A stretch of 64,000 nt of DNA from an uncultured Planctomycetota bacterium (GCA_903892515.1 CAITIS010000102.1:1-64000); one strand, 5' to 3'; positions 13 through 12,723 are shown, counted from the stretch's first letter. Made by a program: numbers and translations. The notes: a model not told the origin generated them from the letters alone.

Positions 13-213
13 ATGCTCGCCGCGGATCAAGTCGCCGCCATCCTGAACTGTTCAACGCGCACGGTATATCGCTTGGTCGATTCGGGCCGCATGCCGCCAC
101 CCTGCCGGCTGGGTGGGCTGGTCCGCTGGAACGCCGCCGTCATCGAGGCGTGGATCGCCGCCGGATGCCCGGTCCCTGGCAAGCCGCAGGTAGGTCAGAT
201 TCAGCGGAATTGA
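13..213 (+). CDS. AlpA/excisionase-like helix-turn-helix DNA-binding protein (5' end may lie outside the window)
   Basis: MLAADQVAAILNCSTRTVYRLVDSGRMPPPCRLGGLVRW matches the MerR/AlpA-type HTH pattern; the frame is open upstream to base 1; sits just upstream of an integrase. Confidence 0.8.
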   Translation: MLAADQVAAILNCSTRTVYRLVDSGRMPPPCRLGGLVRWNAAVIEAWIAAGCPVPGKPQVGQIQRN

Positions 214-292: not shown

Positions 293-1756
293 ATGGCCAC
301 GATTTACCGCAAGGTGTACCCGGTCCCCATGCCCGAGGGGGCGGAGATCATTAACCGTCGCGGCCAGCGGCTGGCACGCTGGATCGACGGCAACGGCAAC
401 GTCAAGATCGCCCCACTTGCGGCAGACGGCAAGAAGATCATGCACAAGGCGGGCTGCTGGTATGCCCGCTATACCGACGCCGACGGCGCCGCCTGTCGCG
501 CTTCCACCGGCTGTCACGACGAACAGGCGGCGCGGAAGGTCTTGGCGGATTTGCTTGCCGAAGTGGACAAGATCCGCTCAGGTATCTTGACGCCCCAGGA
601 AAGTCAGGCGACGCGGCACGCGGCCCGGTCGATTGCCGAACACGTTGCGGACTATCTGGCCTTCCTGAAGGTCAAGATCATTCGAGGCCGCCGGCTCTCG
701 GAATCCCACCGCTACAACGTGGACAAGCAACTCAACCGGCTTATCAATGAGTGCGGCTTCAAGCGAATCGGTGACGTCACGCGGCAAACCGTCACGAAAT
801 GGCTGAGCGATGAGACTGACCGGTCGGACAAAGCGCCCAGAACCGTCCTGAAATATCGCATGACGCTGATGGCCTTCTGCAAGTGGGCCCTGAGAGAAGG
901 ACGTATCGTCTCTAACCCGCTGGTGGCGTTGCCGGGCGTGGCGGTAGATGAAGACCGCCGGAAGCGTAGGCCTCTCGCCATTGACGAGATCGTCGCTGTC
1001 CTGGAAGTAGCTAGGATGCGTCCGCTGCGTGACGCCCTGCTGATTCGCCGGGGAGCCCGCAAGGGCCAGGAAATCGCCCACGTGAGCCATACCGAGCGCA
1101 ATCGGTTGGCTCAGCTCGGCCGGGAGCGGGCATTGATCTACAAGACGCTCATCTATACCGGCCTGCGCAAGAACGAACTGGCCAGCCTGACCCTGGCCGA
1201 CGTGCATCTCGACTGCGAGCGCCCGTTCCTGGCACTGGCCGCCAGAAATGCCAAGAGCGGCAAGGGCGCGAGCATTCCCTTGCGAGCCGACTTGGTGCAA
1301 GAACTCCGCGAGCACCTGGAAGAAAAGCTGACGCGGCGCCGCGGGGAGATGTTCAAGAATGGCCGGACTGAAATGCCGCTGGCACTGCCGGGCGGCATGA
1401 CGCTTTTCAACGTGCCGCAGGGCCTGGTGCGGATTTTCGACCGCGACCTGGTGGCCGCCGGGCTCGCCCACGAGGTCGTAGACCCGCAGACCGGAAAGAA
1501 ACGGATCGACAAGACCGACGCCGATGGCCGAACCCTGGACGTTCACTGCCTGCGGCATACCTTCGCCACCTTGCTCAGCAAGGCCGGCGTGGTGCCGCGA
1601 ATGGCCCAGGAACTGATGCGTCACAGCGACATCCGGCTGACGATGAACGTGTACACCCACCTGCAACTGGTCGATACCGCCAGTGCGGTGGAATTGTTGC
1701 CGCGAATCGGACTGATGCAGCGCGAGGCTGACCACAACGTCGCCGCTGGGGCATAA
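293..1756 (+). CDS. Tyrosine recombinase / phage-type integrase
   Basis: Catalytic motifs TGLRKNELASLTLADV (Arg I), HCLRHTFATLLSKAG (HxxR), LMRHSDIRLTMNVYTHL (H...Y). Confidence 0.93.
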   Translation: MATIYRKVYPVPMPEGAEIINRRGQRLARWIDGNGNVKIAPLAADGKKIMHKAGCWYARYTDADGAACRASTGCHDEQAARKVLADLLAEVDKIRSGILTPQESQATRHAARSIAEHVADYLAFLKVKIIRGRRLSESHRYNVDKQLNRLINECGFKRIGDVTRQTVTKWLSDETDRSDKAPRTVLKYRMTLMAFCKWALREGRIVSNPLVALPGVAVDEDRRKRRPLAIDEIVAVLEVARMRPLRDALLIRRGARKGQEIAHVSHTERNRLAQLGRERALIYKTLIYTGLRKNELASLTLADVHLDCERPFLALAARNAKSGKGASIPLRADLVQELREHLEEKLTRRRGEMFKNGRTEMPLALPGGMTLFNVPQGLVRIFDRDLVAAGLAHEVVDPQTGKKRIDKTDADGRTLDVHCLRHTFATLLSKAGVVPRMAQELMRHSDIRLTMNVYTHLQLVDTASAVELLPRIGLMQREADHNVAAGA

Positions 1757-1866: not shown

Positions 1867-4800
1867 ATGACTGCTGCCCAATCTGCCATCGACCAAACTT
1901 TAGAAGTCCTTGGCTACAAGGGCTCGGCGAACTTTCTGCTGCGCAATTCACCAGAGCTCGATTCAGCAGTTGATCTTGCCCACATTTTCCGAAAAGCTGT
2001 TGCTGATTGCAGTCTTCGCGGCGTCTACGTTCTTCGCCCTGACTCAAAGTCCGCAGAATCGATCACGCCTGTAGTTTATGTGTGCGAAGCAACGGACGAC
2101 GCCGCGGCAGAGGCGATACACAAGCGGGTGTGGAACCAAAATATTGTCCCGTTCGTGGTAGTGCACACACCACGTTGCGTCCGGCTCTACTCGGGCTTCA
2201 GATACAGCGAGCCGGCTCAATCTGACCCTAAGCGAGGGGTTCTTCGAACTGCTACAGCATTCAATGAAATTGCTGCTGCGATGGCTGGCTTGACGGCAGA
2301 AGCCATCGATACCGGCGTTATTTGGCGAGAATGGGCCGAGGCGGTTACCCCTGACACGCGCGTCGACTGGACGCTCCTGGATCATCTTCGTCGCTTGGAA
2401 GACATGCTGCGGAAGCAAGACCTTGACAGAGGCACATCGCATGCCTTGATCGGAAAATTCGTCTACCTGCGATATCTTCGCGACCGGGGCATCTTGTCTG
2501 ATCGAAAACTAGATCGCTGGAACATTGATCCAAAGGATCTCTTCAGCCGAAATGCTACCCTCGCAGCCTTCTGGGCGGCCAATGATCAGCTTGATGAGTG
2601 GCTGAATGGTGCGGTTTTCCCCCTTTCAACGCGGAAGGATGCGATCAAGTCGACGCACTTGAAGAAGGTGGCTGGCGTCTTTTTCGGTGATGACCCCGCG
2701 GGCCAACTCCATCTGGATTTTGGCGCGTATGATTTTTCGTGTATTCCGACCGAAACGTTATCTAGCATCTATGAACAATTCGTCCACGCTCCTGAGGATG
2801 ACGGGAAGTCCCTAGGAAAAGAGGCTGGAGCATTTTACACGCCCGTGCCGCTTGTTAACTTCGTACTGAACGAACTTGACCAGGCACGTTCCCTTCAAGA
2901 AGGGATGAAGGTGCTCGATCCGGCATGTGGCTCTGGCGCCTTTCTTGTTCAATGCTACCGCCGACTAATCGAGCGTAAGAAGCGAGCAGCAAGAAAAGCA
3001 CAGTTAACACTCCGTGAGCTCCGCGACTTGCTGACAGATCACATTTATGGCGTCGAGAAAGATGGGGATGCGTGCCAGGTCACCTCACTCAGTCTGGTGC
3101 TCACCTTGCTGGACTGCGTAGAACCGCCCGATCTTGAGAATAATCCCACATTCAAGCTGCCCAGCCTTGCGAACAAGAATGTCTTCGAAGCTGATTTCTT
3201 TGATCCAGATTCGACTTGGGCCAGAGCGGCCGCGCAGCTGCGATTTGACTGGGTTGTCGGTAATCCACCTTGGAAGGATCTAAAGCTGCGGACGGCGCCC
3301 GTCTCAGATCCGCACGCGTGGGCATGTATGCAGAAGAACGCCAAGAGCATGCCGGCGGGAGGCAACCAACTGGCGGAACTATTTGTCTGGAAGGTCATCG
3401 GCTGCATGTCATGCGGCGCCGTGGCGGGACTTGTCCTGCCGGCAATGACGTTGTTCAAGCACGAGTCTGCCGACTTTCGTCGGAAACTATTCCGTGAACA
3501 TTCGGTTTGGTGCATAGCAAATTTCGCCAATCTGGCATACGTTCTTTTCGGAGGTCGAGCAGAACGACCAGCCTCTGTCTTCTTCTTTCGTGAGACACCG
3601 CCCAAAGAGGACTCGCGCATTTTGACCTACGCTCCTTTGATTGTGAATCAAGAAGCCAACCGACCAATGCCGGGCAGGAAGACAACAACATGGAACATTG
3701 TGGTTGACTCATCGGATATTAGAGAACTCCGGGCGCAGGAAGCAGCTGAGGGCGGCATGCTTCTGTGGAAGCTGGCCATGTGGGGTTCGCATCGCGATGG
3801 AGCGTTGCTTGCCAGAGTTGGATCTCGATTCAGTAGCTTGCTCGCCTTTGGCGCAAAGCATGGCATCGTGGCACGTCAAGGACCGGAGTTGCGGGAAACT
3901 GGAGTCAAAGGCACAGAATTCGTCCCTGAATTGGCAAACCAGAAACTGGTCCGATTGCGTGAATTGCGAAACTCAGGTCGCCTGTTCTGGTTACCTGAAG
4001 ACGCCATAGGGCACATCAGTCCACGCAAGGCGTACCTTCGACTGCGAGGTGGAAAAGCAGGGCTGGACGTATGCCGACCACCTCATATTATTGTCGATGC
4101 CGCTCGCCGCTTCGCCATCTATACCGACGACTTCGTTGTAGTTCCTCCGAGACAGATAGGCATTGCTGGTCCCAAGGAGAAGAGCGACATTCTGCGGGCG
4201 CTGTCGCTATATCTTAATTCAGATTTCGCGCTTTACTATCAGTTCTTCTTCTCTCCCGCCTGGGGAATCGATACAAGCGTCGCAACCCTGGACGCCCTTC
4301 AGAATTTGCCCGTACCAGTGGAGCATCTCGATTCAAAAGAGTTGGCGAAGTGGGTTGCGATGCAGAAGCGATTGGAGATCCCGCAGCCGCTCGATGCCCT
4401 CAGCGAACAAGGGCAAAGAGCCGCTTTGCCAGAAGAACTGGACACCCTGAACGGCTGGGTATACTCGCTGCTTGGGCTTCACCCTTCCGAACAAATACTC
4501 GTGCAGGATTTCGTTCGCAATAAACTGCAGGCCCTCAAAGGCAAAGTCACAGCTGACAGCCTCCGCATCCCGGCTCAAGGTGAGATGGATGCATACCTGA
4601 AGACACTCAAGAAAGAGTTAGACAATTTTGTTGAGATCGTGGCCAAACGGTACCACCGCGTTCAGGCTGTTGTGGCAGAGCACAGTTCTATGATTTGCAT
4701 CGACCTTGTGGGCAGACGCGAAGCTGCTACCCAGTCAATTGTTACTGCCGATAGCCTCACAGCTGCCGCACTGACTGATGCCATGCGGCGTCTTCGGCGC

Positions 4801-4977
4801 CAGCATAGTCAATGGCTGTATTTTGACCGGTCACTGAAGATTTGCGAGGGCTCACGGACTTACCTGTTCAAGCCCAACCAACGAATGCACTGGACGCGTA
4901 CTCAAGCTCTGCTTGATGCTGATGATTTGATCGCAGACACCTTAGGAAACGAGGATAGTCCTTGCGTGCAGCAGTAA
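1867..4977 (+). CDS. N6-adenine DNA methyltransferase, Eco57I/type IIG-like large methylase
   Basis: GAFYTPVPLVNFVLNELD, VLDPACGSGAFLVQCYRRLIE (motif I), FDWVVGNPPWKDL (NPPW motif IV); 1036 aa. Confidence 0.9.
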   Translation: MTAAQSAIDQTLEVLGYKGSANFLLRNSPELDSAVDLAHIFRKAVADCSLRGVYVLRPDSKSAESITPVVYVCEATDDAAAEAIHKRVWNQNIVPFVVVHTPRCVRLYSGFRYSEPAQSDPKRGVLRTATAFNEIAAAMAGLTAEAIDTGVIWREWAEAVTPDTRVDWTLLDHLRRLEDMLRKQDLDRGTSHALIGKFVYLRYLRDRGILSDRKLDRWNIDPKDLFSRNATLAAFWAANDQLDEWLNGAVFPLSTRKDAIKSTHLKKVAGVFFGDDPAGQLHLDFGAYDFSCIPTETLSSIYEQFVHAPEDDGKSLGKEAGAFYTPVPLVNFVLNELDQARSLQEGMKVLDPACGSGAFLVQCYRRLIERKKRAARKAQLTLRELRDLLTDHIYGVEKDGDACQVTSLSLVLTLLDCVEPPDLENNPTFKLPSLANKNVFEADFFDPDSTWARAAAQLRFDWVVGNPPWKDLKLRTAPVSDPHAWACMQKNAKSMPAGGNQLAELFVWKVIGCMSCGAVAGLVLPAMTLFKHESADFRRKLFREHSVWCIANFANLAYVLFGGRAERPASVFFFRETPPKEDSRILTYAPLIVNQEANRPMPGRKTTTWNIVVDSSDIRELRAQEAAEGGMLLWKLAMWGSHRDGALLARVGSRFSSLLAFGAKHGIVARQGPELRETGVKGTEFVPELANQKLVRLRELRNSGRLFWLPEDAIGHISPRKAYLRLRGGKAGLDVCRPPHIIVDAARRFAIYTDDFVVVPPRQIGIAGPKEKSDILRALSLYLNSDFALYYQFFFSPAWGIDTSVATLDALQNLPVPVEHLDSKELAKWVAMQKRLEIPQPLDALSEQGQRAALPEELDTLNGWVYSLLGLHPSEQILVQDFVRNKLQALKGKVTADSLRIPAQGEMDAYLKTLKKELDNFVEIVAKRYHRVQAVVAEHSSMICIDLVGRREAATQSIVTADSLTAAALTDAMRRLRRQHSQWLYFDRSLKICEGSRTYLFKPNQRMHWTRTQALLDADDLIADTLGNEDSPCVQQ

Positions 4978-5612
4978 GGAAACGCGGGCAGTCGAACAAT
5001 CGTGATTTCTATCTGGCGTGCCTGCGCCGCCACGCTCACGAACTGCTTCGGATGGGCTACGCCCGCCTCTGTCCAAATGACCTTGCCCTCAGCGAAGAGA
5101 CCGAGATTACAGGCGAGTTGGTCCGGGCCATGCACGATGCCGTGCAAGCCGATTCTGCTCCATCATGGGTCGTTCACTATGCCTTGCCAAAAGATGACCC
5201 GCCCTTGAACACACCGTCGCGTCTCGGAAAGGCTCGTTACCGTATCGATATCGAATTCGAGCGAGTGCAACGAGGAGCCAGGCCCCTGTTTCGATTTGAG
5301 GCGAAAAGACTTGGAGAGAGGCGTCCTGCGTCGATCTACCTCGGCAAGGACGGTTTGGGATGTTTCTTGAGTGGCCGTTACCCTACGACGAATTGCCAGG
5401 CGGGCATGATAGGCTACGTTCAATCAGATGACGAGGCGACCTGGGCTTCGAAGATTTCGGAATGCATGTCAAAGGACCGAGGTGCCTATCGAGTCCAAAA
5501 GCTCGGCGAATGGAGAAGAATTCGCATTATTCATGGCCTTAAGTACACATATCAGACAAGCCATGCCACGCCGGCAATCACGATCTACCACGTTCTGTTG
5601 CGATTCTCATAA
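4962..5612 (+). CDS. Uncharacterised protein with PD-(D/E)XK-like signature; candidate nuclease partner of the methylase
   Basis: TTG start overlapping the methylase by 16 bp; YRIDIEFERVQRGARPLFRFEAKRLG fits D-x(n)-E-x-K; later GCFLSGRY...AGMIGYV. Confidence 0.6.
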   Translation: MRAAVRKRGQSNNRDFYLACLRRHAHELLRMGYARLCPNDLALSEETEITGELVRAMHDAVQADSAPSWVVHYALPKDDPPLNTPSRLGKARYRIDIEFERVQRGARPLFRFEAKRLGERRPASIYLGKDGLGCFLSGRYPTTNCQAGMIGYVQSDDEATWASKISECMSKDRGAYRVQKLGEWRRIRIIHGLKYTYQTSHATPAITIYHVLLRFS

Positions 5613-5634: not shown

Positions 5635-5676
5635 GTGCCCGAATCAGTGCCGCCGGTGCCCGAATCGGTGCCGGAC
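5635..5676. repeat. Two imperfect direct copies of a 21-bp unit (GTGCCCGAATCRGTGCC...)
   Basis: gtgcccgaatcagtgccgccg followed by gtgcccgaatcggtgccggac. Confidence 0.7.
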
Positions 5677-5813: not shown

Positions 5814-5830
5814 GTGACATGCTCTGTCAC
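5814..5830. repeat. Perfect 6-bp inverted repeat GTGACA-TGCTC-TGTCAC abutting the tRNA 3' end
   Basis: gtgacatgctctgtcac read directly. Confidence 0.75.
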
Positions 5831-5832
5831 AC

Positions 5833-5904
5833 AGCCAGCGGTGGGATTTGAACCCGCAACCCCCGCTTTACAAAAGCGGTGCTCTACCGTTGAGCTACGC
5901 TGGC
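5833..5904 (-). tRNA. tRNA-Thr (anticodon UGU)
   Basis: Reverse complement GCCAGCGTAGCTCAACGGTAGAGCACCGCTTTTGTAAAGCGGGGGTTGCGGGTTCAAATCCCACCGCTGGCT folds as a 72-nt cloverleaf; anticodon loop TTTGTAA; one C-A mismatch in the T stem; CCA not encoded. Confidence 0.95.
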
Positions 5905-6078: not shown

Positions 6079-8277
6079 TCAGACCAAGCTCTTCTGGTGG
6101 TACTCGTAGAAGGCGGCGTAGTTCTTCTTGAGATAACCGCCGGCCATCACGCGCACGCCCTGCAGCACGCCGCCGACAACATGCGTCCCGGCGCGAGCCA
6201 GTTGATCGACCGAGCGACGCACCTCGCCGATATTGCTGACACCGGCTCGAATGACGAAGATCACGCCGTCAACCTGGGCGCTGAGCACGCGGGCATCGGT
6301 CACGACCATCACCGGCGAACCGTCAAAGATCACCTGGTCGTACTCGGCCATCATTTCCTGAACCATGTGACGGGCGAATTCCGAGCCCAGCAACTCGGCC
6401 GGATTGGGCGGCATGGGGCCAGCGGGCATGACCGACAGGTTGGGAATCTCGGTAGCGACTACCGCGTCCCGCCACCCGACCGCGCCGATGAGGGCCGAAG
6501 AGAATCCCTGCGACTCGATCGCCTGCGGGAACACCTTGGCAATGGCCGCCTGGCGGAAGTTGGCGTCCACAATCAGCACCTTCTTGCCGGCCTGGGCGAT
6601 GCAAGCCCCCAGGTTCGTCACGACCGTCGTTCGTCCATCCTCGGCCGAGGGGCTGGTGACCAGGAGGCTGCGTCGACTCTGCACCGGGCCGCTGAAGAAC
6701 AGATTGGTGCGGATGTGGCGGAAGGCTTCGGCCGCCGGGGAGAGCGGCGCCTCCAGCACCGCGCGGTAGATGTCCTTGAGTTCCTCGTCCAGGTCGTCGA
6801 TGTGCGGCACCATGCCCAGCAGTGGCATGTCCAACTTTCGCGTGATGTCACTGGGGTTCTTGACGGAGCTGTCCGTCAGTTCCACCAGGAAAGCCAAACC
6901 AAAGCCAAAGACCAAGCCCAGCACGATACCGACCGGAGCCATGATCTTCCACTGCGGCTGGGAACGTTCGCGCGGCTCAGTGGCATAAGCTCCGATGGAC
7001 ACAGGGCCCACCGAAGGGTCTTCTCCCGGCCTGGGCCTGTTGAGCACCAGCTTGCGGTCCATGAGCTTCTCGTCCAGCATGCTGATCTGCCGTTCTATAT
7101 CGGTGGCCTCGGTGCTCTTGGTGGTATACTTAGCAATCTGATTCTCCAGGTCGTGCGATTCGTCGTTCGTTTTCTTGAGCTGATCAGTCAAGTCCTGGCA
7201 TTGCTTGGTCAGCATCGACAACTGCGACTGCCTGATCTCGCTTTCCTTCTGGACCTGGGTCTGCACGATCTCCTTTCGGCGGTCCTTGATCTGGCCCTCC
7301 GTGGAATCGATGAGCGTCTGCAGATGCGTCACCGTCTTGTGACGATCGCCGTAACGGCGTTTCATCGTATCCAGCTGGGTTTCGTACTGGCCCTTCTGGA
7401 AGATCAATTGACGATATGTCTGGTCCAGATCGATCGCCTCGATGACGCGAGGGTTCTTCTCCTGCTCACCGTTCTGCAACTGCTCCTGAAACTGCTTGGC
7501 CGACATCTCGGCCATGGCTTGGTCGGACACTGCCTTGGAGAGATCCCTGTTGATTTCCTGTAGCTTGGAGACAACGACCGCCTGCTGGCTGCGCATGCCC
7601 TCGTTATCGCCGCCGACACGCAGGCCTCTCATATCCTCGCGTATGGCGGTCAACATCTTCGTGAGCCGGTCCTTCTCGGCCGTCAACTTGGCCACAGCGT
7701 CTTCGCGATCCCGTCGCGTCGGCTTGGCCGCAAACGTCACGAACGCATCAGCGACCGCATTGACTATGTCGGGCAACTCCTTCTTGTCCGAGCCCTTCAT
7801 GGACAGCTTGATGAAGGATGTCTCCGGCAAGGCCGCCACGTCCAAATCGCTGATGAATGTCTCGATCACCCTGTCGCGGTGGGTTCGATACCAAACCTTG
7901 TCCTGGACGCGCTTGTCATTGGCCGCTTCACGCAACACTTCCTCGTGCTTGACAAGCTGCGCCTGGCTCCGCTTGTAGCGTTCAATGACCTCCTTGCTGA
8001 TCATCGTGGACATGTCAGCGCTGAAGAAATTGTTCTGAGGCGGGCTGACGGCCAAGTAGGCTTCCGCGCGATACTGCGGCGCATACACCTGCCAGAGTGC
8101 GGTGCCGACCCCTACCAGGGCGCATGTCGAAAGGAACGTCAGGAGAATCAACCAGATCCGCTTGCGAACGATGCGAACCAGGTCGCGCGGAGCCAGCCCC
8201 GCGCCTGTCGGATGAACCCCAGGCCGCGCCGAACCTGGCAACCGTGGAGCCTGATCTTTCGTGATGGCCATTGTCAT
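6079..8277 (-). CDS. Wzz/BY-kinase-type polysaccharide biosynthesis protein (chain-length determinant plus ATPase domain)
   Basis: N-terminal Wzz-like TM region, coiled coil, C-terminal ATPase VTSPSAEDGRTTVVTNLG...VLIVDANFR and a Tyr-containing tail YLKKNYAAFYEYHQ. Confidence 0.9.
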   Translation of the reverse strand: MTMAITKDQAPRLPGSARPGVHPTGAGLAPRDLVRIVRKRIWLILLTFLSTCALVGVGTALWQVYAPQYRAEAYLAVSPPQNNFFSADMSTMISKEVIERYKRSQAQLVKHEEVLREAANDKRVQDKVWYRTHRDRVIETFISDLDVAALPETSFIKLSMKGSDKKELPDIVNAVADAFVTFAAKPTRRDREDAVAKLTAEKDRLTKMLTAIREDMRGLRVGGDNEGMRSQQAVVVSKLQEINRDLSKAVSDQAMAEMSAKQFQEQLQNGEQEKNPRVIEAIDLDQTYRQLIFQKGQYETQLDTMKRRYGDRHKTVTHLQTLIDSTEGQIKDRRKEIVQTQVQKESEIRQSQLSMLTKQCQDLTDQLKKTNDESHDLENQIAKYTTKSTEATDIERQISMLDEKLMDRKLVLNRPRPGEDPSVGPVSIGAYATEPRERSQPQWKIMAPVGIVLGLVFGFGLAFLVELTDSSVKNPSDITRKLDMPLLGMVPHIDDLDEELKDIYRAVLEAPLSPAAEAFRHIRTNLFFSGPVQSRRSLLVTSPSAEDGRTTVVTNLGACIAQAGKKVLIVDANFRQAAIAKVFPQAIESQGFSSALIGAVGWRDAVVATEIPNLSVMPAGPMPPNPAELLGSEFARHMVQEMMAEYDQVIFDGSPVMVVTDARVLSAQVDGVIFVIRAGVSNIGEVRRSVDQLARAGTHVVGGVLQGVRVMAGGYLKKNYAAFYEYHQKSLV

Positions 8278-8289
8278 AGCTGCTACTCC

Positions 8290-11200
8290 CTACTCCGAGC
8301 CGCCCAGATGCTCCATCGCCTGCTTGAGCTTCTGGTAGTTCGGGTCCTTCTCGTCTTTCTTAACCGTCTCCCAGCCCAGACGGTACTGCTCCAATGCTTC
8401 ATCCTTGCGGCCCTGCTTTTCCAGGGTCTGACCGAGGTAGTATCGGCTCGACGCCAACGGCTGAACCTTTAGGCCGTGGGTCAGCGCGTCCTCGGCTTCC
8501 TTATACTTCTCCAAGTTCAGCAGGATCATGCCGTACGTGTCCATGACGCTGGCGTTATTGGGTGCCAGCTTGGCGGCCTTTTCTGCTATCGGGAGCGCCT
8601 CGGCGTACTTGTGCATGTACTCGCCCAGGCAAAATGCCAGGTTGTTGTGCATAATGCCATCATTGGGTTCCATCTTGATGGCCAATTCGAACGTCTTGGT
8701 CGCATCTTCATACTGCCCGAGATTCTGATACGTCACGGCCAGCACGTTATAGAGGGTCAGCTTGTCCCTGCCATCGGGCGCTTTGGCCGCAGCAGCCGTA
8801 AGGGCCACCGCCGCTCCCTTGTTGTCGCCCGCCTCGCCCGTAAGCTGCCCAAGGTGCATCTGGATTCGCCAGCCATCCTTGCCCAGAGACTCCCATTTCT
8901 TCAGGTTGGCTATCACCGTGGGCTTGGGGTAGGCGCTTTCCATCTGGGCGACAACGAAGTCGATCTCAGGAATTGTCGCGGCCTTCAGGGCGGTTGTGAA
9001 AGCCTCCTCCGCCCCGGCCTGATCGCCCTTCTTGGCCAGTGACCGCCCGATCAACGCGTGGGCTTGCACCGCTACGTTCGGCGACGCCAACAGCGCTTGG
9101 CAGACCGGCAAGGCCTTGTCGTACTCGCCCGTCTCGATCAGCATCCTAGCCGCCATCAAATCTATGTCCGTCTGCTCCGGCCCAATGGCAACAGCTCGTG
9201 CGTCGCGCAGCGCAGCCAGCGCCTTGTCCACCTGCTTGCGCTGCAGCCACATCTGCGCTTCGAGCCTCGGGAAACCCGTCTCCTTGGGATACAGCCGCCG
9301 TGCCGCTGTCAGGAACTGGGCCGCCTGATCCCACTGCTGCTTCTGAATCATCAGTTGAGCCCGCGCCGTCCTGGCCGGCACAAAGTCGGGCGATTCCTCG
9401 TTAATCTTCTGCAACAGCAGATCCGCACTTTCCACGTCGCCGGTCAGGATATACAACTCGGCCAGGCGATATGGCACCTGTGGGTTCATCCGTGGCTGGG
9501 CGCGTCGAGCGGCCTCCAGGTCGGCAATCGCGGCCGTCGTGTCGCCGGTGGCCTGATTGGCTTCCGACCGGGCCAGCAGCGCCGCCACGGCTTGCGGGTT
9601 ATTCGCTAAGATGCCGTCCAGAACGTCGCGGGCTTTTCCGTAGTCCTTTTGGGCCATGTGCCAAGCCGCCCGTTCGCTCAGGACGTCCGCGTCATTGGGC
9701 TTGTCTTTGAGCATCGCGTCAATCATCTTCTGCGACTCATCGAACTGCTTGGCGCTGATCAGCAACTCCACTAACTGCATCTGCGCCGCCGCGGCGCCGT
9801 TCTTGTCCTTGACGCGCTGAATGTATTCCTTCTGGCACTTGACCGCCTCGGGCCAATTGCCCTGACGCTGATAGAACTGCGCCGCCGAAGCATAGGCCTC
9901 GCCGTTCTGATCGTATTGAAAGGACTTTTCGTACACGGTCTTGGCCTTGTCGACCTGCCCGGCGTGCTCCAGGAAGTCCGCCCAGTACACAAACCCAACC
10001 AGCTTGTTGTCGGAATCGTTGGCGAACTTGGCCATCAGCGACTGGGCGTCGCCATCGCGGCCGGTCTTGAGCAGGAAATTGGCGTACATCCGGCAGGCCG
10101 TCGCATCCTTTGGCGCCGACTCATACAACGTCTGGTAGATACGACCTGCGTCGGACGCCTGGTTGTTCCGTTCGTACAGCATGGCAAGCCGCATCAGGTT
10201 TTGTCCGTCGCGAGGCTGCGTCCGCGCCACTTGCTCACGCTGGCGCAGCGCCTTGGCCATATCGCCCTGCGACTCCACCAACTGCAGATACCGTTCCCGA
10301 ACCTGCGCGTTGCCGGGGAACATGCGGTACGCCTGCTCCATGTACTTGTTGTACTCTGACATCTGGCCAGTACGATCGGCGACATTGATCAGACCCTGGA
10401 TGGCGGCGACGTTCTTGGGATCCTGATCGTATGCAGCCGCGTAGGCTTCCTTGGCTTTGTCCAACTGGTTGTTGTTGAAATAGCATTCGCCCAGCAGGGC
10501 CTCCGCCTGACTGAACCGAGGCCGCTCCTGCAGAACCTCGTTGAGCACCTCAATGGCCTTGTCGTATTCTCGCCGATTGTGGTGAATGATCGCCTGGAAC
10601 CACTTGCCGTGACACTTGTCAAGGTTCTCCTTGGCAGCCTGGTCGACGTACTTCTGGGCCGTGTCCCAGTCGTTCTTGTCGATGGCGAACCCAAACAGGC
10701 GCATCACCGCCTCGGCATTGTCGGGCTGCTGCTTGATGACCTCGTTCAGATCCGCCAAGGCCTTCTCGCGGTCGCCGGCCGAACTGTAGATGTCCGCTCG
10801 CCGGATCATGCGTGCAATGGGATCCTTGATATTCTGATCCGCCAGCTTCAACTGGATCTCAAGCTGCTGGCTGGGATCGTCTCGAACGGTCAGGGCCATG
10901 TTCAGCCGCTCCAGAACGGCCGGATCGTCGGCCAGATCCCGTTTGGCCCGGTCCATCAAGGCCTGCACCTCAGCCGCCTCATTCCTCGCCCGCCGCCACA
11001 CGATCAGGTCCAGAATCACGCCCAGGTTGCGCGGTTGACGATCGTACAGATCGCTCGCCAGTCGCAACGCGGAATCGGAGTCTCCCTGGTTCCAGTATTC
11101 CTCAGCCTTCTTCAAAATGAGAACGGTGGCGAACTGGTCCAACTCGCGAATGTCATCGGGAACGCGAGTGATAGCGCCTCGCGCTATCTTCAGCGCCGCA

Positions 11201-12723
11201 GTCAGAGCGGCCACATCCTTCATTTCCGGATGCTTCTTGAGAACTTCCTCAGCGGCCGCCAGCGCCTCGTCGTACTGCTCCAATTCCGCGCACATCCGCG
11301 CCAGCGACATCATTCCGGCCGGGTCGTCCTTGGCGGTGGTCACCAGAGACTGGATGATCCGCTTGGCGTCGCCCGGCTGGCTCGTGCGCAGGTAGATGTT
11401 GACCAGGGCCTGGGCAGTCTTGCGGTCGCCCGTGCCTTCGTAGCCGCGGCGAAGAAGAGGCTCCGCATTGGTCAGATCGCCTTCGACCGCAAGCTTGCGC
11501 CCGCGGACGGAAGCCACCAGTGGATGCTCCGCGATCACGCCCGTCATCTCGTTCAGCGCGCTGTCCAACATGGCCGTGAGCTTGGGCTTATCCTGCTCGC
11601 TGGCCGTCGCTAACTGATCCAGCACGTAGTCGCACAGAACATAGTTCAGCCACACCAAGCCTTCCCGTTGCCGGCCCAGGGCCATGCCCTCAAGCTTCTG
11701 CTCGCCCGTCGTCTGCTGCCGCAGGGTATCCAGCCCCAGCTGAACCAGCGGCAATACCTTGTCGTATTCCTTCGTAAACATATACAGCGAGGCTAGCATC
11801 CGGTACGGACGATAGTCCACCGTCTTCTGGGCGATGGCGTTTCGGAGGACTTCGATGCTCTTGTCGACCTGATTCTGCCGCTGGTAAAAGATCGCCAAGG
11901 CCATGAAGACGTCCGCGTTGTCAGGATTCTTGGCCAGCGTATCCGTCAACAGGGCCAGCGCCTCTTCGGGCTTCTTGTTCTCGGCGACTTGGAGATACTC
12001 GGCATATGTGGTGCGAAGACGCACGGAATCCGGCACCGCCGCCATGGCCTGCTTGAGGGTCTCCGCCCCGTCAGCCTGGTTCTGACTCGAGAAATAGTAC
12101 CGGGCCAATCCCAGCCAATACTCGTCCTTGCCGGGTTCATCCTGCACAAGCTGCTTGAACTCCTCCAAGGCCTGATCACCGTACTCCGGCCGGGTCGCCA
12201 TCATTGCCATCTTGGCCGCGGCGATCTTGAAGCGAGTGGCGCTGTCCTTGGGGTCCATCCGCAGCAATTCGCTGGCTTCCTTGATGTAGCTTTCCCAGTC
12301 CTGGTTAGACATGGCGATCGCTTCGTAGATATCAGCCAGTTTGCGCTGCGCGTCCTGGCCGGCCTTGGTCCGTCCGCCCTGGTCGTAGCGCACCGCCTCG
12401 CGGTAGGATCGAATCGCGCTGAAAACAAGCTTTTGCTGGTCGGACTGGGCCAAGCCCTTTTCTTCCTTGCGACGCTCGAGCATCGCATCGGCCAAGGCCA
12501 GGTAGTGCGCCGGCTTGTGCCCGATTTCGGCGGCGGCCGACAGGTCAGCGGTAGCCGCGGCATAGGATTTTTCCTTCAGTTCCTTCTCCGCCTTGGCGGC
12601 GAGTTGGTCGGGATCCTTGGGTTGACGCATCGTCAGGACCGCTGCGACCGCCACCAGCAGCAGCCCAAGGATCGACACCAGAAGGATCACAAACCGCTTG
12701 TTAAGTTGTTTCTTTTTGGCCAT
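8290..12723 (-). CDS. Large TPR-repeat protein with N-terminal TM anchor (exosortase-system TPR protein)
   Basis: 1477 aa of repeated TPR motifs; N-terminal hydrophobic helix RFVILLVSILGLLLVAVAAVL; located in the exosortase operon. Confidence 0.9.
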   Translation of the reverse strand: MAKKKQLNKRFVILLVSILGLLLVAVAAVLTMRQPKDPDQLAAKAEKELKEKSYAAATADLSAAAEIGHKPAHYLALADAMLERRKEEKGLAQSDQQKLVFSAIRSYREAVRYDQGGRTKAGQDAQRKLADIYEAIAMSNQDWESYIKEASELLRMDPKDSATRFKIAAAKMAMMATRPEYGDQALEEFKQLVQDEPGKDEYWLGLARYYFSSQNQADGAETLKQAMAAVPDSVRLRTTYAEYLQVAENKKPEEALALLTDTLAKNPDNADVFMALAIFYQRQNQVDKSIEVLRNAIAQKTVDYRPYRMLASLYMFTKEYDKVLPLVQLGLDTLRQQTTGEQKLEGMALGRQREGLVWLNYVLCDYVLDQLATASEQDKPKLTAMLDSALNEMTGVIAEHPLVASVRGRKLAVEGDLTNAEPLLRRGYEGTGDRKTAQALVNIYLRTSQPGDAKRIIQSLVTTAKDDPAGMMSLARMCAELEQYDEALAAAEEVLKKHPEMKDVAALTAALKIARGAITRVPDDIRELDQFATVLILKKAEEYWNQGDSDSALRLASDLYDRQPRNLGVILDLIVWRRARNEAAEVQALMDRAKRDLADDPAVLERLNMALTVRDDPSQQLEIQLKLADQNIKDPIARMIRRADIYSSAGDREKALADLNEVIKQQPDNAEAVMRLFGFAIDKNDWDTAQKYVDQAAKENLDKCHGKWFQAIIHHNRREYDKAIEVLNEVLQERPRFSQAEALLGECYFNNNQLDKAKEAYAAAYDQDPKNVAAIQGLINVADRTGQMSEYNKYMEQAYRMFPGNAQVRERYLQLVESQGDMAKALRQREQVARTQPRDGQNLMRLAMLYERNNQASDAGRIYQTLYESAPKDATACRMYANFLLKTGRDGDAQSLMAKFANDSDNKLVGFVYWADFLEHAGQVDKAKTVYEKSFQYDQNGEAYASAAQFYQRQGNWPEAVKCQKEYIQRVKDKNGAAAAQMQLVELLISAKQFDESQKMIDAMLKDKPNDADVLSERAAWHMAQKDYGKARDVLDGILANNPQAVAALLARSEANQATGDTTAAIADLEAARRAQPRMNPQVPYRLAELYILTGDVESADLLLQKINEESPDFVPARTARAQLMIQKQQWDQAAQFLTAARRLYPKETGFPRLEAQMWLQRKQVDKALAALRDARAVAIGPEQTDIDLMAARMLIETGEYDKALPVCQALLASPNVAVQAHALIGRSLAKKGDQAGAEEAFTTALKAATIPEIDFVVAQMESAYPKPTVIANLKKWESLGKDGWRIQMHLGQLTGEAGDNKGAAVALTAAAAKAPDGRDKLTLYNVLAVTYQNLGQYEDATKTFELAIKMEPNDGIMHNNLAFCLGEYMHKYAEALPIAEKAAKLAPNNASVMDTYGMILLNLEKYKEAEDALTHGLKVQPLASSRYYLGQTLEKQGRKDEALEQYRLGWETVKKDEKDPNYQKLKQAMEHLGGSE

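What the first reader, a model, noticed from the sequence alone, without database searches (positions are those of the whole stretch)
1867..5612. Two-gene methylase plus small PD-(D/E)XK-like module: candidate restriction or other anti-phage system
Seen: a 1036-aa N6-adenine methylase (DPACGSG, NPPW) overlaps by 16 bp, via a TTG start, a 216-aa ORF containing YRIDIEF-x11-FRFEAKRLG, which fits the D...ExK nuclease core. Established: Eco57I/type IIG enzymes normally carry nuclease and methylase in one chain. Inference: the small protein is a detached nuclease, making a compact translationally coupled defence pair. The methylase gene also looks visibly less GC-rich than the flanks, as expected for recent acquisition.
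Basis: partly seen in the sequence, partly recalled or inferred. Interest (0 to 1): 0.72.

Follow-up and report, generated by a model that had tools for sequence, protein, structure and literature searches.

The report
Two-gene restriction system with separate nuclease
A DNA-methylating protein whose built-in cutting domain appears to have lost its active site is almost always followed by a small separate gene that looks like a DNA-cutting enzyme, so bacteria seem to have split a well-known one-protein restriction enzyme into two partners that share one targeting part.

Summary
A 1036-aa N6-adenine methylase (M, 1867-4977) overlaps by 16 bp a 216-aa ORF (S, 4962-5612) carrying D96...E113-A-K115. 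Homologues show the pair is a real module: of 63 distinct, decidable M homologues, 54 have S directly downstream and no D/ExK site in their own N-terminus, 8 have the site in cis and no S, none has both, one has neither. In 50 aligned S proteins E46, D96, E113, K115 and Y126 never vary. M is type IIG-like along its length, but its N-terminal nuclease-like domain lacks the catalytic residues. A natural mosaic (L027/L030) has an exchanged M target-recognition region with S 90% identical, suggesting S takes its targeting from M. I conclude: a split type IIG-like restriction-modification system, R + (M-S fusion), here as cargo of an integrative element in tRNA-Thr. It is not a simple detachment: M keeps the dead domain, and S is not detectably the same nuclease. 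PADLOC files M alone as type IIG and has no model for S. Cleavage, protection and anti-phage action are inferred; S's fold was not confirmed by structure search.

The parts
1867..4977 (+). M: N6-adenine methylase, type IIG-like architecture (1036 aa)
   Evidence: Pfam N6_Mtase 4e-18, MmeI_Mtase, Eco57I; PADLOC REase_MTase_IIG 5e-55; Foldseek best BpuSI type IIG 1e-17
1867..2346 (+). M aa 1-160: nuclease-like N-domain without D/ExK (pseudo-nuclease)
   Evidence: AF2 alpha-beta-beta-alpha-beta-beta at aa 38-109; homologous to the cis nuclease domain, P=2.4e-6 over its second half; no conserved D/ExK
2917..2937 (+). MTase motif I DPACGSG (aa 351-357)
   Evidence: sequence; D351, G355, S356, G357 invariant in 21 homologues
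3262..3273 (+). MTase motif IV NPPW (aa 466-469)
   Evidence: sequence; invariant in 21 homologues
3664..4356 (+). M aa ~600-830: putative target-recognition region
   Evidence: least conserved M region (mean pairwise identity 0.228); overlaps the segment exchanged between L027 and L030; position follows type IIG layout (inference)
4962..5612 (+). S: small partner, putative PD-(D/E)XK nuclease (216 aa)
   Evidence: E46, D96, E113, K115, Y126 invariant in 50/50; AF2 pLDDT 86; no Pfam/NCBIfam/PADLOC family
5247..5249 (+). S D96 codon (putative catalytic)
   Evidence: invariant
5298..5306 (+). S E113-A114-K115 codons (ExK)
   Evidence: E and K invariant
4962..4977 (+). 16-bp overlap of M stop and S start (TTG); GAGGA at 4951-4955
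   Evidence: sequence; close coupling conserved in homologues
293..1756 (+). tyrosine integrase of the carrying element
   Evidence: Pfam Phage_integrase 6.6e-17
13..213 (+). small helix-turn-helix (AlpA/excisionase-like) ORF before the integrase
   Evidence: reading of the sequence only
5833..5904 (-). tRNA-Thr(TGT), probable integration target
   Evidence: ARAGORN
5828..5874 (.). 47-bp putative att core: exact copy at G000 contig C59:886-932 beside another integrase remnant
5635..5670 (+). two GTGCCCGAATCRGTG repeats; the only other exact copy in the genome is C59:996-1010, beside the second att copy

Best explanation
The pair is a split type IIG-like restriction-modification system. M recognises a DNA sequence through its C-terminal target-recognition region and methylates an adenine there. 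Its N-terminal nuclease domain has lost its active site and probably survives as a docking or structural platform. S is a PD-(D/E)XK endonuclease with little or no specificity of its own; it docks on M (perhaps on the pseudo-nuclease or connector domain) and cuts unmethylated target DNA, for example phage DNA. Starting S inside the end of M ties its supply to M. Shown: conserved pairing, mutually exclusive cis and trans active sites, one trans clade, invariant D/ExK, a recognition-region exchange with nearly unchanged S. Inferred: docking, cleavage, protection, defence.
For: Pairing and exclusivity: 54 trans, 8 cis, 0 both, 1 neither of 63; the M-driven searches alone give 36, 8, 0, 1. Trans Ms form one clade (support 0.957) with the S-less M inside it. 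S catalytic residues invariant in 50/50; PD-(D/E)XK-like order helix 46-62, D96 strand, ExK strand, helix, strand 146-153, helix; the best profile match of S to the in-chain nuclease falls on D...ExK, though weakly (P=0.028). M resembles BpuSI and DrdV over almost its full length. Natural mosaic L027/L030: M flanks mostly 90-100% identical, aa ~620-736 only 30-40%, S 90%. On an Agrobacterium plasmid (L012) M has lost all catalytic motifs by internal deletion while S is full length with D...EAK, so S alone is tolerated. R-M-like upstream partners in some loci: LexA-, MerR- or XRE-like regulators, or a second methylase. Defence neighbours: DISARM-like genes (L025), type III methylase and MkoA (L031), type IIG (L034).
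Against: No significant structural match for S (best E 0.41; nucleotidyltransferases as well as restriction enzymes in the weak list). S has no Pfam family (one of 15 members touches PDDEXK_9 at E=0.36). The recognition-region exchange is one clear pair. The L012 cell could hold a compensating methylase. Nothing was measured; no recognition site is known.
Confidence: 0.72

Rival explanations
1. Ordinary two-protein type II system: S is an autonomous restriction enzyme with its own sequence recognition, M is its cognate methylase, and M's N-domain is only a relic.
For: Separate R and M genes are the commonest type II layout; 216 aa is enough for an orthodox restriction enzyme (own knowledge); S diverges about as fast as M's recognition region (mean identity 0.232 and 0.228).
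Against: L027/L030 exchanged M's recognition region while S stayed 90% identical; S is intact on a plasmid whose M has lost its catalytic centre; the tie to loss of the in-chain site points to functional replacement.
Confidence: 0.15
2. S is a modification-dependent or signal-dependent nuclease: M marks host DNA and S acts on something other than unmethylated M sites, as in BREX- or MADS-like methylation-guided defence.
For: M's next structural neighbours include BrxX/PglX and there are weak MADS2/PglX profile hits; methylation-guided systems without simple restriction exist.
Against: Only two genes are conserved; no BREX or MADS partners at the window or as a constant neighbour.
Confidence: 0.08
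3. S is not a nuclease (regulator or structural subunit of the methylase, or a nucleotidyltransferase-like fold).
For: The weak Foldseek list includes many nucleotidyltransferases; no family hit.
Against: E46/D96/E113/K115 invariance fits a nuclease; the GS...DxD nucleotidyltransferase signature is absent (position 98 varies); S appears exactly where the in-chain nuclease site is missing.
Confidence: 0.05

Closest known systems
Type IIG restriction-modification enzymes (BpuSI, DrdV, MmeI/Eco57I kind; PADLOC REase_MTase_IIG PDLC03603, PDLC03623)
   Same: M has the same methylase family and overall layout and matches two PADLOC type IIG models; structure closest to BpuSI.
   Different: By definition cleavage and methylation lie in one chain (PMC4081073); here the in-chain active site is gone and the putative nuclease is a second gene that PADLOC does not model. 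Tested single-chain relatives match another model, PDLC03604.
HVO_A0006 / HVO_A0237 of Haloferax volcanii, a hypothesised split type IIG (PMC4389544)
   Same: A separate small PD-(D/E)XK protein proposed to complete a methylase lacking its nuclease.
   Different: There the nuclease piece is a fragment of the type IIG N-terminus encoded apart from the methylase on the same plasmid, beside transposition genes; here the genes are coupled, conserved over several phyla, M keeps a dead N-domain, and S is not recognisably that nuclease.
Type IIB/IIG BcgI-like (RM + S subunits)
   Same: The R, M and specificity modules are distributed over two polypeptides.
   Different: BcgI joins R with M and separates specificity; here M is joined to specificity and R is separate (own knowledge and PMC4081073).
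Type I restriction-modification
   Same: Separate nuclease subunit working with a methylase-specificity core (as inferred here).
   Different: No translocase: S is 216 aa without a helicase domain; no separate HsdS.
BREX PglX/BrxX and DISARM DrmMI methylases
   Same: Related large adenine methylases; similar fold.
   Different: No other BREX or DISARM genes beside the window pair; pairing with S is specific to this clade.

Membership tests
Type IIG restriction-modification enzyme | gamma-class N6-adenine methylase with motifs I and IV | tested here: met
   Pfam and motif conservation
Type IIG restriction-modification enzyme | DNA-cleavage domain active in the same chain | tested here: not met
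   no D/ExK site in the N-domain of M or of the other trans homologues
Type IIG restriction-modification enzyme | Cleavage stimulated by or requiring AdoMet, at a fixed distance from the site | not testable with these tools
   needs biochemistry
PD-(D/E)XK nuclease superfamily (S) | Invariant D and (D/E)xK, with acidic residue in helix 1 | tested here: met
   E46, D96, E113, K115 invariant in 50/50
[quoted passage not shown]
   AF2 model has a compatible order of elements, first strand only two residues; no significant Foldseek match
Type I restriction-modification | HsdR translocase/helicase subunit and separate HsdS | tested here: not met
   S is 216 aa, no such Pfam domain; no conserved third gene
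BREX | PglZ, BrxC and BrxL-type partners | tested here: not met
   no such gene was identified beside the window pair (neighbours after the tRNA judged by reading only); no constant partner other than S in homologous loci
Nucleotidyltransferase fold (rival for S) | GS...DxD motif | tested here: not met
   residue 98 is not conserved and no conserved GS precedes D96

The most novel reading that the evidence does not exclude
A distinct restriction-modification subtype, R + (M-S): a specificity-free PD-(D/E)XK nuclease subunit targeted by a type IIG-derived methylase whose own nuclease is dead, so that changing M's recognition region alone re-targets both methylation and cleavage. It arose once and spread through Planctomycetota, Alphaproteobacteria and other phyla.
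Probability: 0.55. Interest if true: 0.62.

Novelty: new variant of a known kind. Interest (0 to 1): 0.55.

Why it matters
PADLOC labels this methylase clade type IIG, which implies one self-sufficient enzyme. If the nuclease is a separate gene, those labels mislead: the partner is missed and methylases look like complete restriction enzymes. A modular R + (M-S) system would also show how in-chain nucleases are replaced in evolution, and re-targeting by M alone could make it an adaptable tool enzyme.

Tried and rejected
Viral contigs: no S relative; phage records: no M relative, so the pair is not known from phages. An eight-sequence alignment was too diverse for a DNA-pattern scan; a five-sequence one worked. 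Solved structures by sequence: S none of note, M only type I/II methylases in the catalytic core. Rejected: S as a fission product of M's own N-domain (M keeps that domain; profile match of S to the in-chain nuclease only P=0.028). Rejected: a conserved three-gene system (upstream genes vary: LexA-, MerR-, XRE-like, second methylases, or none). Mirror-tree correlations of S with the parts of M did not separate the parts (0.55-0.63). The weak S match on G000 contig C29 lies in an aminotransferase-like ORF and was taken as chance. Literature searches found no description of this pair, but the library lacks most subscription journals and REBASE was not available.

Full report
What is there. The window begins at base 1 of a contig (G000:C102). 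It opens with a small helix-turn-helix ORF and a tyrosine integrase (293-1756), followed by the methylase M (1867-4977) and the small gene S (4962-5612), then a tRNA-Thr(TGT) on the minus strand (5833-5904).

M by sequence. Pfam gives N6_Mtase (4e-18), MmeI_Mtase and Eco57I. PADLOC's best models are two type IIG profiles, PDLC03603 (5e-55) and PDLC03623 (nearly full length). Curated cut-offs for Alw26I-type, BREX PglX and MADS2 families are far from reached. S has no family in Pfam, NCBIfam, PADLOC or PHROGs, nor do 14 diverse relatives have one in Pfam, PADLOC or PHROGs.

The pair is conserved. S relatives were found in 8 of the other related genomes searched, in 22 loci of the GTDB collection (Planctomycetota, Binatota, Kiritimatiellae, Thermoanaerobaculia, Fimbriimonadales and Alphaproteobacteria by record title) and on alphaproteobacterial plasmids. 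Nearly every S with enough contig before it has an M directly upstream, usually with a 4-bp ATGA-type overlap.

The converse test is the strongest result. Starting from M (profile A4) in 296 genomes of the phylum and 398 of the class, and fetching flanks, I asked two things: is S downstream, and does M's own N-terminus hold a PD-type D...ExK site? Of 63 distinct decidable Ms, 54 have S and no in-chain site, 8 have an in-chain site (for example VDYGLKI...IFVEAK) and no S, 0 have both, 1 (L098) has neither (Fisher p=2e-9, which ignores relatedness). M-driven loci alone give 36/8/0/1. In a tree of the connector-methylase region the trans Ms form one clade (0.957) that contains L098, and the cis Ms lie outside it. 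So this looks like one evolutionary change, not 54 independent ones. The weakest trans M scores E=3e-56 and the strongest cis 3e-45, so the two groups do not overlap in score.

M keeps a dead nuclease-like domain. The AF2 model of M (pLDDT 84) shows helix 38-48, strands 50-56 and 67-74, helix 78-91, strands 96-100 and 105-109. Profile comparison of the trans N-domain with the cis nuclease domain matches their second halves (probability 89%, P=2.4e-6), aligning HRLVWNQDVVPFVIVHTP with the stretch just after the cis ExK. The positions of D and ExK are not conserved in the trans group. Foldseek places M nearest BpuSI (type IIG), CamA, BrxX and DrdV.

S as a nuclease. In 50 aligned S proteins (mean pairwise identity 23%) E46, D96, E113, K115 and Y126 are invariant, and H210 is in 49 of 49 with a residue there. 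The AF2 model (pLDDT 86, pTM 0.85) places E46 at the start of a helix, D96 at the start of a strand and E113/K115 in the next, as in the PD-(D/E)XK fold. However, Foldseek against the PDB found nothing significant: the weak list mixes restriction enzymes (PaqCI, EcoT38I, BamHI, FokI, SwaI) with nucleotidyltransferases. The best profile match of S to the cis nuclease falls on D...ExK (RRVDIRID...FRFECKRL with RVDWAFRIDG...FFLEAK) but at P=0.028. The superfamily assignment is therefore likely, not proven.

Who carries the specificity? Two loci from different genomes, L027 and L030, have Ms mostly 90-100% identical at both ends but only 30-40% identical over aa ~620-736, in the target-recognition part, and S 90% identical with the differences scattered. 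If S recognised the site itself it should have changed too. On Agrobacterium plasmid pA (L012) M has lost residues ~314-755 (numbering of L011 M), catalytic motifs included, while S and the upstream regulator are intact; S alone is therefore tolerated, as expected of a subunit that needs M. Each point has an escape (a single pair; a methylase elsewhere in the cell).

Company. Directly upstream of M lie, in different loci, LexA-like (L017, L024), MerR-like (L011, L012, L013, L035) or XRE (L065) regulators, a Dam-like methylase (L034, L036) or a type III-like methylase (L060), judged by reading the sequences. Elsewhere DISARM-like DrmMI and HKD/Snf2 genes (L025), a type III methylase and Mokosh MkoA (L031) and a type IIG enzyme (L034) are near. 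None of these is constant; the core is M+S.

The carrying element. GC of M and S (0.54-0.55; GC3 0.57-0.59) differs from the integrase (0.63; GC3 0.79) and the host region (0.634), so the pair looks foreign even to its integrase. The 3' part of the tRNA-Thr (47 bp, 5828-5874) recurs exactly on contig C59 (886-932) beside the end of another integrase. The repeat GTGCCCGAATCRGTG occurs exactly only three times in the genome: twice next to S (5635, 5656) and once just beyond the C59 copy. I read these as the two attachment sites of one element, or of tandem ones, with M-S as cargo between integrase and attachment site; the middle is not assembled, so this is inference.

Relation to the known. Type IIG enzymes are defined by cleavage and methylation in one chain (PMC4081073). 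M fails that defining feature, so the pair is not a type IIG member although it probably works like one. The nearest precedent is the suggestion that HVO_A0006 supplies the nuclease missing from HVO_A0237 in Haloferax (PMC4389544), an isolated case of apparent fragments. PADLOC's two matching models show that this methylase clade is already catalogued as type IIG, without its partner: tested trans Ms hit PDLC03603 and PDLC03623, tested cis Ms hit PDLC03604. Novel is thus the partner gene, the dead in-chain site and the consistent R + (M-S) layout, not the methylase family.

Limits. No activity was measured. Host names come from record titles of mostly metagenome-assembled genomes. REBASE was not available. 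The cis sample is small (8).

Noticed in passing
window 5828-5874; L117 (G000:C59) 886-932: Exact 47-bp duplication of the tRNA-Thr 3' half next to a second, truncated integrase on contig C59, suggesting one or more integrative elements at tRNA-Thr(TGT).
   Followed up: partly
window 5635-5649, 5656-5670; L117 996-1010: GTGCCCGAATCRGTG repeats found exactly only at the two element ends in the 4.9-Mb genome; possible integrase arm sites.
   Followed up: partly
L012 4993-7435: Plasmid pA of Agrobacterium sp. CGMCC 11546: M internally deleted (no catalytic motifs) but S and MerR-like regulator intact.
   Followed up: yes
L098 444-3545: M of the trans clade with neither S nor an in-chain ExK: possible orphan methylase.
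   Followed up: partly
L024 3983-4615; L029 2219-2995: S is split into two ORFs (M intact in L024): disrupted nuclease or assembly error.
   Followed up: no
L017 4966-5616; L024 304-945: LexA-like repressor overlapping or abutting M: the system may be under SOS-like control.
   Followed up: no
L031 9863-17630: M-S directly followed by a type III methylase and a Mokosh MkoA-like protein.
   Followed up: no
window 6079-12723 (minus strand): Large exopolysaccharide chain-length/kinase-like ORF (732 aa) and a 1477-aa TPR-like protein beside the tRNA; presumably host genes (by reading only).
   Followed up: no
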